A stretch of DNA of 64,000 bases, taken from assembly GCF_900113675.1 (NCBI RefSeq), contig NZ_FOQE01000001.1:1-64000 (forward strand), in the 5' to 3' direction. Origin of the DNA: Pisciglobus halotolerans. GTDB taxonomy: Bacteria > Bacillota > Bacilli > Lactobacillales > Carnobacteriaceae. Numbering within the stretch: position 1 is the first letter of the stretch; the number at the start of each line of letters is the position of its first letter. The position numbers and the translations under genes are program-made. The notes beneath the pieces were generated by a model that worked only from the letters and a program-made list of their open reading frames with translations, was not told the DNA's origin and did not search any database. Positions 1-43,618 of this stretch are shown piece after piece.

Positions 1-169
1 TGTTTTTGACGCCGCAAAGTTTACAGCAGGAAGGTCGATAGGTCAATTTTCCGTGTACTACCAGATATTCTTGATCCTTTTTCTTTTCCTTTGTAACGGG
101 AACTTCAGCTAATTGAACATTTGGGTCTTTAATATTGAGCAATTTTTTTATAGAATGAGTGTAGGCCAT
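1..169 (-). CDS. ISL3-family transposase, N-terminal fragment
   Basis: The first 56 codons of a transposase run off the window edge. Translation from the ATG at 169-167 gives MAYTHSIKKLLNIKDPN, then a stretch with YLVVHGKLTYRPSCC and a further Cys in LCG. This matches the N-terminal region of ISL3-family transposases, which carries a CxxC zinc-binding pair ahead of a helix-turn-helix. The DDE catalytic domain lies outside the window, so it cannot be judged whether the gene is intact. It is not in the same transcription unit as the gene at 471. Confidence 0.75.
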   Translation of the reverse strand, partial: MAYTHSIKKLLNIKDPNVQLAEVPVTKEKKKDQEYLVVHGKLTYRPSCCKLCGVKN

Positions 170-293
170 GTGAATTCTCCTATTCTTTTGTGTGGTAACT
201 TAATTATAGGAGTTCACTGGTCTTTTTTCATTTAAAAACAAAAAATAGTGCCAGTGAACCGATTGGTCCACCAACACTATATATTATAGAGCC
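1..293 (-). mobile_element. ISL3-family insertion sequence, one end only
   Basis: This is the promoter-proximal end of an insertion sequence that continues past the window edge. The outer end is placed at 293, because read on the minus strand the sequence starts GGCTCTATAATATA, and ISL3-family terminal repeats begin with GG. The transposase start lies 124 bp inside this end. The flank at 294-301 (tttctttc) would be one copy of the 8-bp target duplication usual for this family, but the other end is not visible. Confidence 0.75.
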
Positions 294-6577: not shown

Positions 6578-6581
6578 TTCA

Positions 6582-6640
6582 GTTCTTCCTCTGCTAACGT
6601 TGGTAAAGAAATTTCCTCCAGTCGACGTGCTACTAGTGGA
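6582..6640. repeat. Partial copy of the dispersed element seen at 31352
   Basis: This block starts GTTCTTCCTCT and runs through TAACGTTGGTAAAGAAATTT, then a weaker match ending GCTACT.GTG. It parallels 31352-31412 almost base for base and then diverges. No matching right end was found before the 52-bp array, so it looks like a truncated or chimeric copy. Confidence 0.6.
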
Positions 6641-6721
6641 GACATTATTTATGATGTAAGCTGCTTTCAATAGAGGATATTTCTTTTTGAAATTTTTGTA
6701 TTCGAAGACTGCAGTCAGTTC

Positions 6722-7085
6722 GAGTTGGTCAATAAGTAGCTTTAATGACGAACTCGAGAGCCGTACTGAGTTTGAGTTGGTCAATAAGTAGCTTTAATGA
6801 CTAACTCGAGGGCCGTACTGAGTTTGAGTTGGTCAATAAGTAGCTTTAATGACAAACTCGAGGGCCGTACTGAATTTGAGTTGGTCAATAAGTAACTTTA
6901 TTGACAAACTCAGGAGCTGTAACTTATTTGAGTTGGTCAATAAGTAGCTTTAATGACTAACTCGAGGGCCACAACTAGTTTGAGTTGGTCATTAAGTAGC
7001 GTTAATGACAAACTCAGGAGCTGTAACTTAATTGAGTTGGTCAATAAGTAGTTTTAATGACAAACTCGAAAGTTCTACTGAGTTT
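6722..7085. repeat. Seven tandem 52-bp hairpin repeats
   Basis: Units start at 6722, 6774, 6826, 6878, 6930, 6982 and 7034, an exact 52-bp period. Each opens GAGTTGGTCAATAAGTAGC and closes its hairpin with TTAATGACNAACTC. GAGTT-G-GTCA pairs with TGAC-N-AACTC, and N is G, T, A, A, T, A, A in the seven units, so a full Watson-Crick pair never forms at that position. About 18 bp of semi-conserved spacer follows (for example GAGGGCCGTACTGAGTTT). In unit 6, ATTAA opposite TTAAT lengthens the stem. The whole unit is conserved, unlike CRISPR spacers. No open frame of convincing size covers it. Confidence 0.9.
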
Positions 7086-7170
7086 GAGGTAGTATTAAAT
7101 AAAAATACTGTCCACATCAAGACCTAATACTTTTTCCCGATGGTTCACACAACTTTTTTCAATTTGATGG

Positions 7171-7206: not shown

Positions 7207-7540
7207 AGTTAAAAAACGCATGAAAAATGACAAAACGCTATGAAAAGAAGAGTAAGTTTACATTTGTCTATAACAGAGAGCCCAATCAGCTGAAAATGGG
7301 TTAGTCAAATTGAACTGAAGATGGTCTTTGAGTGGAGTCGGCGAGCGCAGTTAAAGCGCCAGCTTTCTACGGGAGCACCCGTTATAGTGCCACAGTATAA
7401 AAAAGACACCCTTGTCTTCCGTACTGATTAAGGTAGGTATAGTGATATATCTATAAACTAAGGTGGTAACACGAACTAGTCCATTGTCTTTCGTCCTTAC
7501 AAAGAAGCAAAAGCTTTGCTTCTTTGTAAGGACTTTTTTA
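7207..7540 (+). promoter_or_regulatory. Met T-box leader 1
   Basis: This is a tRNA-sensing leader. Stem I carries the conserved ACAGAGAGCC (from 7273), and AATGGTCT follows lower down with ATG at 7321-7323 as the probable methionine specifier. The T-box reads AAGGTGGTAACACGAA from 7460; its TGGT should pair with a tRNA acceptor ending in ACCA. ACGAA and AAGG can pair with the downstream TTCGTCCTT to form the antiterminator. The competing terminator is a long hairpin, GTCCTTACAAAGAAGC against GCTTCTTTGTAAGGAC, followed by TTTTTT (7493-7540). The specifier was read from local pattern, not from a computed fold. Confidence 0.88.
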
Positions 7541-7554
7541 TTTGTGCTAATTGA

Positions 7555-7851
7555 ATAACAAAACGCTATGACGAGAAAAGTATTTTCATAGAATGCAACA
7601 ACAGAGAGCCTGGTTGCTGAGAACTGGTTTGCAGAAGTGAAAAGAAAATGGCCTCTGAGCGGGATACCGAGTGTTGAAAAACATGAGATTATCATGGGCG
7701 CACCCATTACAGTGCTAGAGTATCAGAAGATATCTTCTCGTACTTGATGAGGAGTTGTTTGTGAAAACAACTTGAATAAAGGTGGTACACGACGTTAAAG
7801 CGTTCGTCCTTTGGTCTGCAGCAGCAGGTTGAAGGATGAACGCTTTTTTAT
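7555..7851 (+). promoter_or_regulatory. Met T-box leader 2
   Basis: This second complete T-box lies directly behind the first. ACAGAGAGCC occurs at 7601-7610, and AATGGCCTCTGAG puts a candidate ATG specifier at 7648-7650. The T-box is AAAGGTGGTACACGA at 7778-7792. The terminator is AAAGCGTTCGTCCTT against AAGGATGAACGCTTT plus a T run, ending at 7850. Both leaders share the 14-mer ACAAAACGCTATGA 42 bp before stem I, which supports origin by duplication. It ends 22 bp before metN. Confidence 0.88.
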
Positions 7852-30032: not shown

Positions 30033-31241
30033 TCATTCAGCAGGTGTTAAGTAACGTGCATCGATCACTTTCTCTGTCAGTTGTTCGAAGTATTCAGGTG
30101 AAACATCTTCTCCGTCTTCATTTGCTAATGCATGATGTTGTGCAATTTCTTCCGTATAATCTTTTAAAGGATAAATCATAAAATCTCGTCTTTTATCTAA
30201 ATCTTTGTTTTCTCCAGTAGCATAATACACGACAGTAGGTGTCCAATGTACATTTTCAACAACCTTATCATCCTCTTCTTCTGTTACATCAAAGGATAAC
30301 ATACCGCCTAATAAGTTTTTATTGGAGGTAGTCGCCGCCAAAAAGTTTCCCAATGAATAAGCCACCAGGGTTTCATTGCCTTCTTTTCCCTCGACCCATT
30401 CAATTGGCTGAATGGTGTGAGAATGCGTGCCGATCACAACATCTGCGCCCGCATCTGCGAAAACTTTTGCATATTTTTTTTGAAAGTCATTGGGTTCAAA
30501 AGCATGTTCATCTCCCCAGTGAGCAGATATCAAGACAACATCACTAACAGATTTTGCCTTTTTGATATCTTGATTAATTTGATCTTCATCAAAATAATTA
30601 ACAAGATACGAATGTTGCGGTTCAATGCCATTCGTGCCATATGTATAAGACAATAACGAAAAAGTAATGTCGTTTTGTTCAATCGTAGGAACTTCATCTC
30701 TTTTTTCTTGACTGTCAAAAATACCAGTGAAAAGGGTATCAGGATACTGTGCCCATGTTTGAAGTGCATTCGTGATGCCTTTGGTTCCCTTGTCTAAAGA
30801 ATGATTCGTACCGCCATTAACTAAGTCGAAGCCTAAGTCATGAAGATCCTCAGCCATGTCTTCCGGTGTATTGAAAGCTGGATATCCTGACAATCCAAGT
30901 TGAACGCCGCCCAAAATCGTCTCTTGGTTGATAAAAGCCAGGTCAGCTTGCTGAATATCCTCTTCCACAAACTGATAAATCGGTTTAAAGTCATAGGCAT
31001 TTTCCTCTTTTTGTGCATCTTTATAGATTGGACTGTGAATCAAGTTGTCTCCAACGGCTACGAATGAAACTTGTTTATCTGGCAAAGATACAGATAAATC
31101 CGCTTGTTCACTCCCTGTTACTTTTTCCTGTTCTGTCTGCTGTTCACTGCTTTTTTCAGTAGATGAGTCTGAAGTTCCCGTCTCTCCAAATTGGCAGCCA
31201 GCCAATATCGCACTGATCAACAAGATACCTAAACGTTTCAT
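30033..31241 (-). CDS. CapA/PgsA-like lipoprotein metallophosphatase
   Basis: This is a surface lipoprotein of the CapA family, related to the poly-gamma-glutamate factor PgsA/CapA. The signal peptide ends in lipobox ILAGC (Cys near residue 16), and a Ser/Glu-rich spacer follows. The phosphoesterase core motifs are present in order: VAVGDNLIHSP, FINQETILGG, NGGTNHSLDKG, ISAHWGDEH and IGTHSHTIQPIEW, which hold the metal ligands. The start at 31241 is chosen because GGAG lies 8 bases upstream; an ATG two codons earlier is too close to it. No pgsB/pgsC genes are nearby, so a polyglutamate role is not supported. Confidence 0.87.
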   Translation of the reverse strand: MKRLGILLISAILAGCQFGETGTSDSSTEKSSEQQTEQEKVTGSEQADLSVSLPDKQVSFVAVGDNLIHSPIYKDAQKEENAYDFKPIYQFVEEDIQQADLAFINQETILGGVQLGLSGYPAFNTPEDMAEDLHDLGFDLVNGGTNHSLDKGTKGITNALQTWAQYPDTLFTGIFDSQEKRDEVPTIEQNDITFSLLSYTYGTNGIEPQHSYLVNYFDEDQINQDIKKAKSVSDVVLISAHWGDEHAFEPNDFQKKYAKVFADAGADVVIGTHSHTIQPIEWVEGKEGNETLVAYSLGNFLAATTSNKNLLGGMLSFDVTEEEDDKVVENVHWTPTVVYYATGENKDLDKRRDFMIYPLKDYTEEIAQHHALANEDGEDVSPEYFEQLTEKVIDARYLTPAE

Positions 31242-31351
31242 ATCCATCGCTCCTTTTTTAGTTTAGCTTTGTTCCATTATACCAATTTTATTTAGAAATA
31301 ACTTGTCCAAATGTGGTTCTTCTTTTATTAGATTCTCTTGTTAATATAAGA

Positions 31352-31622
31352 GGTTCTTCCTCTTTTAACGTTGGTAAAGAAATTTTCTACGGTCAATGAG
31401 CTACTGATGAAAAGCCATGAGAACACATTGAGCCGAAAATCGCGTCTCAATGCTTGCAAGCTTCAAACTTAGTGTAACGGCTAAAGCCTAACACTAAGTG
31501 ATTCACATCACATCTTTTTTTCATGGCTATCAGTAGTCCTATACGCCTCCTAAAATTTCTAGAAATAGGTTTCTAACGAGCTTAGCATTAAAAAAATTGA
31601 TTTTTTACAAACCAACGTTAAA
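31352..31622. mobile_element. Palindromic, MITE-like multi-hairpin element
   Basis: The block is bounded by TTAACGTTGGT (31365-31375) and its reverse complement ACCAACGTTAA (31611-31621). Inside lie AGAAATTTT with AAAATTTCT, and a stem CTACTGAT..GCCATGA against TCATGGC..ATCAGTAG. Within that stem are CATTGAG/CTCAATG, the palindrome GCTTGCAAGC, and CTTAGTGT/ACACTAAG. The arrangement folds like a multi-branched cross. The left 60 bp recur at 6582-6640. No coding frame of note is present. It fills most of the 499-bp gap between capA-like and pepC. Mobility is inferred from the terminal repeats and second copy. Confidence 0.65.
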
Positions 31623-31740
31623 TACTGCAGAACCATATAAGAGTGCAAAAAAAAAGAAGAGCAGCTGCCCTTCTTTCTTCTAGTCTTTTCATTTTTGATA
31701 GTGGTTTCAATGCGCCTTCTTGTTGAGAAACAAAAAGACA

Positions 31741-33078
31741 TTACTGCATCATAGCTAAGGCTCCCATTGGATCCCAAGGTGCTAATTGAATAACTGGTTC
31801 ATCAAGAGCTTTCAACCATTCTTGGTCGATATATTTCTTATCTACAGAAATTTGATAAGCGAATTCGTCCATCCACTTGTCGCTCATTGAGAAGATACCT
31901 TTTTTCCCAGCTTTTTCACCCCAGCTATTTTCAACTTTCCAATTGATTGGATGACCATCTTTATCCAAGTCCACTCCTACCAATACCATTGCATGAGTCA
32001 ATAAACTTTCGCCATAATCTAGTCTTTGGGCTTTTGTTAAAGAAGAAGCTTCCCCAAGTGTCAATCCGTAATTGTAACTTTGTTCATCCATGATTCCACT
32101 TTCACGGACAGACATTTGCCCAACATCACAGCCATACCAGACAGGTTCGCCATTTTTGATTGATGCGACAGCTGCTTTTTTCAGCACGTCCATTGGTACA
32201 TTGATGTAACGGATCGGTTCAGCTTCTTTAACAGTTCCAAGATATTGGACTGTATAAGCTCGACCATATGGTTTATCTTCTGTTGGTGCATTGATCAAGC
32301 TTACGCGATCAGTTAAATTCCAACCGACGTATTCTTTGAAGAATTCCTGTGGTGTAATGTTTTCGATTCGTTGGAACTGATCATCTTTATCGCGGTATTC
32401 GTAAGTGAAAGTCGTTGGAACTTCTCCCAATGCTTTGACCAAAATATTGTAAATGACATACAACATATCTTCTTTTTGCGCACGTAAATCTTCAACTGTA
32501 GCGCCAGTTTGATACGTTTCGCGCAAACGAGAAGCAAATTCTCTGAGTTTGGTCGTCAAAGCTGTGTTCAATTCACGTGTATTTGAAGAATGATAGGTTT
32601 CAGGCATAACAGCTTTAGGAACAGCACCATATTTTTCTAACATCCCAGCAAACATATCCCATTGTCCACCATCTTGAACAGGCGCTGCAAGCAAATGCGC
32701 AATGATTCTAGAATCGATTGCTTCTTCTAACGTTTCCAAAATACTATCCAAAAAGTAGTTAGATTTTTCTAGTTTATCCCAAAATAGCGTATAGTTTTGT
32801 GAAAATTCAAAAGTTTCTAAGTTCAACTTCGCCATTGTATCGACACGTGCTGTATTTAATGCCGCGAACATCCAGCAACGGCCGCTAGCTTTTTGATTGG
32901 TGATCGCTCCGCGTTTGGTTTCATCTGAGAAAACGAAAGAATGTCTGCGGAAAACATTGTTGTCCAAAGAAGCATCTTTGATTCCTACTTTTGCTATCGC
33001 ACCTTCGATCACTTGGTTTTCCTTATGGGACTCAAAACGTGCTTGATATTGTTCTAGTAAATTTTGATCAATCGTCAT
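31741..33078 (-). CDS. pepC: Aminopeptidase C (peptidase C1B)
   Basis: PepC is a cytoplasmic cysteine aminopeptidase of the bleomycin-hydrolase family that forms a hexameric barrel and trims peptides. The catalytic Cys lies in SGRCWMFAALN near residue 70, the His in LLTHAMVLVGVD and the Asn in WKVENSWGEKAG. The C-terminus places its last residues in the active site in this family. A GTG lies three codons upstream; the ATG at 33078 (MTIDQNLL) fits known PepC starts. Peptide supply from the opp system at 43669-52101 makes it a likely metabolic partner. It has its own promoter. Confidence 0.94.
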   Translation of the reverse strand: MTIDQNLLEQYQARFESHKENQVIEGAIAKVGIKDASLDNNVFRRHSFVFSDETKRGAITNQKASGRCWMFAALNTARVDTMAKLNLETFEFSQNYTLFWDKLEKSNYFLDSILETLEEAIDSRIIAHLLAAPVQDGGQWDMFAGMLEKYGAVPKAVMPETYHSSNTRELNTALTTKLREFASRLRETYQTGATVEDLRAQKEDMLYVIYNILVKALGEVPTTFTYEYRDKDDQFQRIENITPQEFFKEYVGWNLTDRVSLINAPTEDKPYGRAYTVQYLGTVKEAEPIRYINVPMDVLKKAAVASIKNGEPVWYGCDVGQMSVRESGIMDEQSYNYGLTLGEASSLTKAQRLDYGESLLTHAMVLVGVDLDKDGHPINWKVENSWGEKAGKKGIFSMSDKWMDEFAYQISVDKKYIDQEWLKALDEPVIQLAPWDPMGALAMMQ

Positions 33079-33106
33079 ACACTTCACTCACTTTCTATTA
33101 AATTCT

Positions 33107-33295: not shown

Positions 33296-33378
33296 CCTTT
33301 ATATAACAATATCCAACGTTAACCTAAGACTCTTCATCTTCTAACGTTAAGCAGCATAGATCCTAAAATAGTAGATAA

Positions 33379-33880: not shown

Positions 33881-33905
33881 AAAGCGTTTCAAGAATCTGC
33901 GTCGT

Positions 33906-34075
33906 ACTTTTTCATTTTCCTGTCGCCTCTATCGACCTCGCTCCGCATCCTTTTAGTTGAGCTGCGCGAGGCAGAGTCTCGGGTAAAATTCAAAAGATGC
34001 TCACATGCGCGGGATGCTCTGTGGCGCACTTTTTCATTTTCCTGTCGCCTCTATCGACCTCGCTCCGCATCCTTT
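33906..34075. repeat. 48-bp direct repeat pair, 122 bp apart
   Basis: The copies at 33906-33953 and 34028-34075 are identical (ACTTTTTCATTTTCCTGTCG, then CCTCTATCGACCTCGCTCCG, then CATCCTTT). The spacer between them is GC-richer than its surroundings. A third fragment, GCATCCTTTA, lies at 34081. Read on the minus strand, each copy carries AGGCGACAGGAAAATGAAAAA, which resembles a ribosome site and start codon for very short frames (15 and 8 codons). Confidence 0.85.
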
Positions 34076-43208: not shown

Positions 43209-43581
43209 CACTTGAGATATCCTAACACGATTTTTGACTAAAATGGGAGAAACAACAGCTTTGTTATGTTTCTTTATTCGTTCTGTATTATTCGGGAAGG
43301 TATTTTACAAAAGGAATACAGTGTCATGGAAATTGTAAAATCTTACATGCTTCCGTCATAATTGTCACACACGTCATAAACCACTTTTTCTTACCTTCAT
43401 CTCTACTGAGTAAAGGCTTATGTAGTGATTCCCGCTTTTCTCTTCTTTTACTTTCATCTTTTACGTTAGGAGCAGAATGGGAAATGAGCAGGATAAAAAC
43501 GATAGACTCCTTAAATTCCCTTGGCTTTCCAACAGGAGTCCCATCAGCCGGAGGAAATGTCTTTACCCACGTTAGAAAATG
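43209..43581. other. Gene-free stretch between oppF and the LysM gene
   Basis: No convincing gene is seen. It should hold the promoter of the LysM/3D gene. A GACTCC/GGAGTC dyad (about 43506-43542) and a TTTACGTTAGGAG motif (about 43459) are the only notable features. Confidence 0.4.
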
Positions 43582-43618
43582 AAAAAAAAGAAGCTGGAAT
43601 AAGTTTCCAACTTCTTTT
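43582..43618 (-). terminator. Terminator of oppBCDF
   Basis: On the minus strand AAGAAGTTGGAA pairs with TTCCAGCTTCTT, followed by a T run. Confidence 0.85.

What the first reader, a model, noticed from the sequence alone, without database searches (positions are those of the whole stretch)
31352..31622. MITE-like element folding as a multi-branched cross
Terminal repeats TTAACGTTGGT/ACCAACGTTAA enclose a second stem and three inner hairpins. The left 60 bp recur at 6582-6640 in a different context. No coding capacity is present. Such elements may be mobilised by a transposase in trans, or act as mRNA stability elements between genes.
Basis: partly seen in the sequence, partly recalled or inferred. 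Interest (0 to 1): 0.6.

Follow-up and report, generated by a model that had tools for sequence, protein, structure and literature searches.

The report
ISL3-type MITE with conserved folded core
The 283-base piece is one of about 63 copies of a small transposon-derived element in this genome that has ISL3-type ends and makes 8-base target duplications, and most copies carry a folded, roughly 200-base core that recurs across the order Lactobacillales, matches no Rfam family, and in Aerococcus-type genomes sits inside complete ISL3 transposons right behind the transposase gene.

Summary
Confirmed and extended. The element is window 31352-31634 (283 bp), flanked by an 8-bp duplication (ATATAAGA). 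The genome has 63 copies with both ends: 37 full-length (~282 bp, mean 95% to consensus), 24 short forms (66-142 bp), one of 202 and one of 451 bp. 43 have exact 8-bp duplications (offset control 0). Targets are A/T tracts; 22% lie directly behind a strong hairpin (control 4%). The ends are of ISL3 type, and the start of an ISL3 transposase gene with its IS end lies in this window (2-293, minus): a non-autonomous ISL3-type MITE. The host is a GTDB Carnobacteriaceae member, not Enterococcus. The unexpected part is the core: 54 pairs, half with compensatory changes across genera, no Rfam match, found in 38 of 395 Lactobacillales genomes (18 genera), and in a class-wide sample only in that order. 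In the Aerococcus genus it lies directly downstream of the transposase gene inside complete ISL3 elements of two types (46% identical transposases). Copies decay evenly in stems and loops, and short forms lacking the core also transposed, so the core is neither needed for mobility nor kept locus by locus. Whether it acts as RNA or as DNA is undecided.

The parts
31352..31634 (+). full-length MITE copy (283 bp)
   Evidence: 40 full-length matches in the genome including itself; 63 two-ended elements
31344..31351 (+). left copy of the 8-bp target duplication ATATAAGA
31635..31642 (+). right copy of the 8-bp target duplication ATATAAGA
31352..31375 (+). A end GGTTCTTCCTCTTTTAACGTTGGT (corresponds to the transposase-3' side of an ISL3 element)
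31611..31634 (-). B end, read on the minus strand GGTTCTGCAGTATTTAACGTTGGT (corresponds to the left end of an ISL3 element; family form is 19/24 identical to the own IS left end)
31374..31575 (+). conserved folded core (covariance model match 191 bits)
31426..31452 (+). inner hairpin A, CATTGAG...CTCAATG, with compensatory changes in relatives
   Evidence: helix 6
31467..31499 (+). inner hairpin B, ACTTAGTGT...ACACTAAGT, with compensatory changes in relatives
   Evidence: helix 8
6581..6634 (+). truncated left end of another copy
43553..43588 (-). degenerate A-end fragment (7 mismatches in 36)
2..169 (-). first 56 codons of an ISL3-family transposase gene, cut by the contig start; candidate source of transposase
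   Evidence: 86% to the ISL3 transposase of G007
270..293 (-). left end of that ISL3 element, GGCTCTATAATATATAGTGTTGGT

Best explanation
A non-autonomous ISL3-type MITE: the two ends of an ISL3-family insertion sequence plus a folded untranslated domain, with the transposase gene missing. An ISL3 transposase of the same cell most likely binds the 24-bp ends and moves the element into A/T tracts, often the T tracts of terminators, making 8-bp duplications. Shown: copy number, ends, duplications, target bias, and the same core directly behind the transposase gene inside complete ISL3 elements of the Aerococcus genus. Inferred: (1) mobilisation in trans by the resident ISL3 element or a close relative; (2) the core is a structured part of the transposon, probably acting as RNA in the 3' untranslated part of the transposase message, kept by selection on active lineages. 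Individual copies then decay almost neutrally.
For: 63 two-ended copies in size classes ~282, ~137 and ~100 bp; exact unshifted 8-bp duplications in 43, none 20 bp further out. Relatives in other Carnobacteriaceae: 5 of 15 exact 8-bp duplications. B end 19/24 with the own ISL3 left end, best of 20,000 shuffles 16. ISL3 transposase 5' part in the window, 3' parts at other contig ends. Complete ISL3 elements of relatives have 24-bp GG(T/C)TCT...GTTGGT ends and 8-bp duplications. ISL3 elements of G103 and of G020/G281 carry the core directly downstream of the transposase gene, in all four listed copies of G020. Core: 27 of 54 pairs with compensatory changes, score 0.268 against 0.111 +/- 0.006 shuffled. 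Core absent around pepC in 12 relatives.
Against: No autonomous ISL3 element with exactly the MITE's ends was found; the A end is only 15/24 identical to the own IS right end. No core-bearing ISL3 element was found in Carnobacteriaceae, and 27 of 30 examined ISL3 loci have no core. Some cores of the Aerococcus genus have no visible ISL3 ends, and one own MITE carries a diverged core in the opposite orientation, so the core may be an independent module. No clear strand bias of G-U pairs to call it RNA.
Confidence: 0.82

Rival explanations
1. The core is an independent structured mobile module that repeatedly entered ISL3 elements and ISL3-ended MITEs and hitch-hikes on them.
For: Six dispersed cores in G187 without ISL3 ends; a MITE (L034) with a diverged core in opposite orientation; most ISL3 elements lack the core; two ISL3 types with only 46% identical transposases both have it.
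Against: Same orientation and position relative to the transposase gene in both ISL3 types, and the same layout relative to the A end in the MITEs; ISL3-type ends also surround it in Carnobacteriaceae and in G279.
Confidence: 0.25
2. The structure works as DNA: hairpins or a cruciform extruded from single-stranded or supercoiled DNA that aid transposition, replication or persistence.
For: Both strands fold about equally well (consensus -99.6 and -101.4 kcal/mol); species-consensus G-U pairs are few (2.3%) and not much commoner than A-C (23 against 13), whereas FMN riboswitches of the same genomes gave 16 against 3.
Against: Short forms without the core transposed with 8-bp duplications. Neutral decay of copies adds A-C and G-U equally, so the counts are weak evidence; the control is small.
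Confidence: 0.2
3. A host-beneficial element: mRNA stability or terminator-like element kept between genes by selection on the host.
For: Copies lie a median 68 bp from a gene's 3' end, mostly intergenic, and fold strongly.
Against: Stems mutate almost as fast as loops (4.45% against 4.89%) and only 14 of 227 changed pairs remain Watson-Crick; positions are not conserved in relatives. Intergenic position also follows from purging of harmful insertions and from the A/T-tract preference.
Confidence: 0.07

Closest known systems
ISL3-family insertion sequences (Pfam PF01610 DDE_Tnp_ISL3, PF14690 Zn_ribbon_ISL3)
   Same: ends beginning GG(T/C)TCT with GTTGGT at positions 19-24, 8-bp duplications, A/T-rich targets
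   Different: no transposase gene; carries a conserved folded core that 27 of 30 examined ISL3 loci lack
Bacterial MITEs (RUP, NEMIS, Bcr1, ERIC/YPAL, Nezha, EFAR; listed in PMC3733652)
   Same: short, non-coding, folded, inverted ends, high copy number next to genes
   Different: the interior is conserved with compensatory changes across genera and recurs beside the transposase gene of complete insertion sequences
Structured RNAs encoded by insertion sequences (IS110 bridge RNA, TnpB omega RNA); from own knowledge
   Same: conserved untranslated structured domain inside an insertion sequence next to the coding region
   Different: ISL3 transposases are DDE enzymes; no guide role, transcript or protein partner is shown; most relatives lack the domain

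Membership tests
MITE | short, without a transposase gene | tested here: met
   283 bp, no conserved ORF; classes of 66-451 bp
MITE | terminal inverted repeats | tested here: met
   family-consensus ends identical at 19 of 24 positions
MITE | target site duplication | tested here: met
   43 exact unshifted 8-mers, offset control 0
MITE | many dispersed copies at non-orthologous sites | tested here: met
   63 two-ended copies; pepC surroundings of 12 relatives lack the core
MITE | empty sites in other strains of the species | not tested
   only one genome of the genus is held; duplications used instead
ISL3 family (as a derivative) | ends of the family's type | tested here: met
   B end 19/24 with the own IS left end, shuffled maximum 16; A end weaker, 15/24 with the IS right end
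ISL3 family (as a derivative) | 8-bp target duplication | tested here: met
   own copies and complete ISL3 elements of relatives
ISL3 family (as a derivative) | an ISL3 transposase acts on these ends | not testable with these tools
   transposase gene parts present in the genome; needs a transposition assay
known Rfam RNA family | match to a covariance model | tested here: not met
   no credible match on the core of the window copy or its relatives
new structured RNA family | conserved pairing with compensatory changes | tested here: met
   27 of 54 pairs; far above shuffled and slid controls
new structured RNA family | transcribed, one strand preferred | tested here: inconclusive
   G-U against A-C counts give no consistent strand; no expression data held
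EFAR (Enterococcus faecalis repeats) | sequence relation and integration mode | not testable with these tools
   EFAR sequences not held; only a mention was read

The most novel reading that the evidence does not exclude
Some ISL3-family transposons of Lactobacillales encode a dedicated, undescribed structured RNA directly downstream of the transposase gene, which works with or regulates the transposase; MITEs such as the one in the window are ends-plus-RNA derivatives that spread it through genomes.
Probability: 0.3. Interest if true: 0.8.

Novelty: new variant of a known kind. Interest (0 to 1): 0.6.

Why it matters
MITEs are usually seen as two ends around degenerate filler. Here the interior keeps a complex fold with compensatory changes in at least 18 genera of Lactobacillales and is found beside the transposase gene of complete ISL3 elements. 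That points to an unrecognised functional part of a common insertion-sequence family, or to a hitch-hiking structured module, and adds a candidate structure family absent from Rfam. One genome with natural copies with and without the core offers a simple test system.

Tried and rejected
Known RNA family: no Rfam match on the core at gathering or relaxed thresholds. Phage or plasmid origin: no match to the element and none to the core pattern in viral contigs; a second viral pattern was malformed and not repeated. Strand call from G-U asymmetry: alignment A2 suggested the minus strand (68 A-C against 32 G-U), but groups disagree and species consensuses are nearly even, so it was dropped; FMN riboswitches served as a small control. 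Small ORF or leader peptide in the core: frames not conserved by eye. T-box likeness of the GGNACCG motif: too short, and no Rfam T-box match. The first alignment A1 mixed strands by my error and was replaced by A2. Literature searches found MITE lists and ISL3 papers but nothing that describes this core.

Full report
Observation. Window 31352-31634 carries GGTTCTTCCTCTTTTAACGTTGGT ... ACCAACGTTAAATACTGCAGAACC, nested stems and inner hairpins, and folds far better than shuffles (DNA z -5.9, RNA z -7.5). ATATAAGA stands on both sides. The left 53 nt recur at 6581-6634 (85%) as a truncated copy. The element lies between a C1-type peptidase gene (31741-33087, minus) and a PGA_cap gene (30033-31247, minus).

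Copies. The own genome (2.44 Mb, 88 contigs) gave 40 full-length matches including the query (89-95% for the others; only 40 candidates were scored) and 71 left-end matches against none for the reversed pattern. Pairing ends in the fetched loci gave 64 candidate pairs, one a double count, so 63 elements: 37 of 277-288 bp, 24 of 66-142 bp, one of 202 and one of 451 bp. 43 have identical 8-mers exactly at both borders; 8-mers 20 bp further out match in none. The 137- and 100-bp classes have lost the core but keep ends and duplications.

Targets. The duplicated octamers are A/T tracts (31 T-rich, 28 A-rich, 4 other). Directly upstream of the T tract, 14 of 63 sites have a hairpin of -8 kcal/mol or better, against 3.9% of positions with matched T count (Mann-Whitney p = 2e-6). 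Terminators are thus favoured, though most sites are plain A/T tracts. By simple ORF sites lie between tandem and 17 between convergent genes, three inside short ORFs; the median distance to a gene's 3' end is 68 bp. For comparison, an 8-bp duplication with an ISL3-family element, within an rRNA-operon terminator, has been reported in E. faecium (PMC11702846).

Which transposase. The signs point to ISL3. Complete ISL3 elements of relatives have 24-bp ends GG(T/C)TCT...GTTGGT and exact 8-bp duplications. The window itself begins with the left end of such an element (270-293, minus) and the first 56 codons of its transposase, 86% identical to that of relative G007. Transposase 3' parts lie at other contig ends, as expected if the assembly broke inside a repeated IS. 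The MITE B end is 19/24 identical to that left end (best of 20,000 shuffles 16); the A end is less similar to the right end (15/24). Movement in trans is therefore inferred, not shown.

Host. The window's GTDB family includes G015, whose contigs of 322769, 131459 and 316134 bases have the lengths of Desemzia incerta DSM 20581 contigs. Desemzia belongs to Carnobacteriaceae. The Enterococcus guess is not supported.

The core. In other genera of the family, elements with ISL3-like ends share the inner ~200 nt at about 70-80%. Aligned on one strand (A2), a structure of 54 pairs in nine helices is formed in 93.5% of cells; 27 pairs have compensatory changes; the covariation score is 0.268 against 0.111 +/- 0.006 in shuffles and 0.05-0.09 in slid versions. 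Conserved linkers flank the hairpins (GCTTGCAAGCTTCAAAC, GTAATTCACATTG). Caveats: the structure was derived from these sequences, and the shuffles do not keep relatedness.

Distribution. A covariance model found the core in 38 of 395 genomes of the order, in 18 of 80 genera and five families, often in six copies, the most that was scored per genome in that search. A refined model over 398 genomes of the class found it in three genera, all of the same order. An exact pattern scan gave names: Desemzia, Carnobacterium maltaromaticum, Aerococcus, Atopobacter, a Tetragenococcus MAG and a record labelled Streptococcus sp. 263_SSPC. No Rfam family matches the core. The own genome holds about 50 cores.

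Link to complete transposons. G103 belongs to the genus (g9) of G180, whose contig of 1069652 bases has the length of an Aerococcus kribbianus contig. In G103 a complete ISL3 element with the duplication ATAAAAAG has the core between the transposase stop codon and the right end, in at least three copies. G020 and G281 carry another ISL3 type (46% identical transposase) with a reduced core 59 nt behind the matched transposase region, in all four listed copies of G020. The core has the same orientation relative to the transposase gene in both types, and the MITE keeps that layout relative to its A end. Most ISL3 loci examined (27 of 30) have no core, though several have other strongly folded segments at the same place (L183 z -6.8, L189 -5.7, L204 -5.4).

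Function of the core. Shown: it is not required for mobility (24 short copies lack it) and is not kept site by site (stem substitutions 4.45%, loops 4.89%; 14 of 227 changed pairs still Watson-Crick). The fold must therefore be kept in active lineages. I favour a role in the transposon's own expression, as RNA in the 3' untranslated part of the transposase message; this is inference. G-U against A-C counts decide neither the strand nor RNA against DNA (control). Cores without ISL3 ends in G187 and a reverse-oriented core in one own MITE (L034) leave room for a hitch-hiking module.

Verdict. The MITE reading is right and well supported; descent from an ISL3 element is supported by ends, duplications and the resident transposase gene. 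The conserved core is what goes beyond a routine MITE.

Noticed in passing
window 6667-7145: Tandem array of a 52-bp unit (7 or more copies) with inverted repeats (GAGTTGGTCA...TGACTAACTC), close to the truncated MITE at 6581.
   Followed up: no
window 7226-7282 and 7554-7610: Two related leader-like segments, followed by GGTGGTAACACG and GGTGGTACACG, T-box-like by eye, although the Rfam scan gave no match at gathering threshold.
   Followed up: no
window 33896-33953 and 34018-34075: 58-bp direct repeat (95%) with starts 122 bp apart.
   Followed up: no
window 33310-33370: Short head-to-head pair of AACGTTA motifs that resembles degenerate MITE ends.
   Followed up: no
L183, L189, L204: ISL3 elements of other genera carry unrelated, strongly folded segments between transposase gene and IS end (z -5.4 to -6.8).
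   Followed up: partly
L110 and L111: In two Desemzia copies a shared segment, AGCGAC(T/G)TACGGATATGGTATGCG, lies inside the core in place of its usual middle; roughly similar stretches are seen by eye in inserts of L144 and L151.
   Followed up: partly
L034, 675-1125: 451-bp MITE with the usual ends but a strongly diverged core in the opposite orientation (44 bits).
   Followed up: partly
L158-L163: Six dispersed cores of G187 bounded by TGAGCA/TGCTCA, without ISL3 ends or a consistent duplication; how they spread is unknown.
   Followed up: partly
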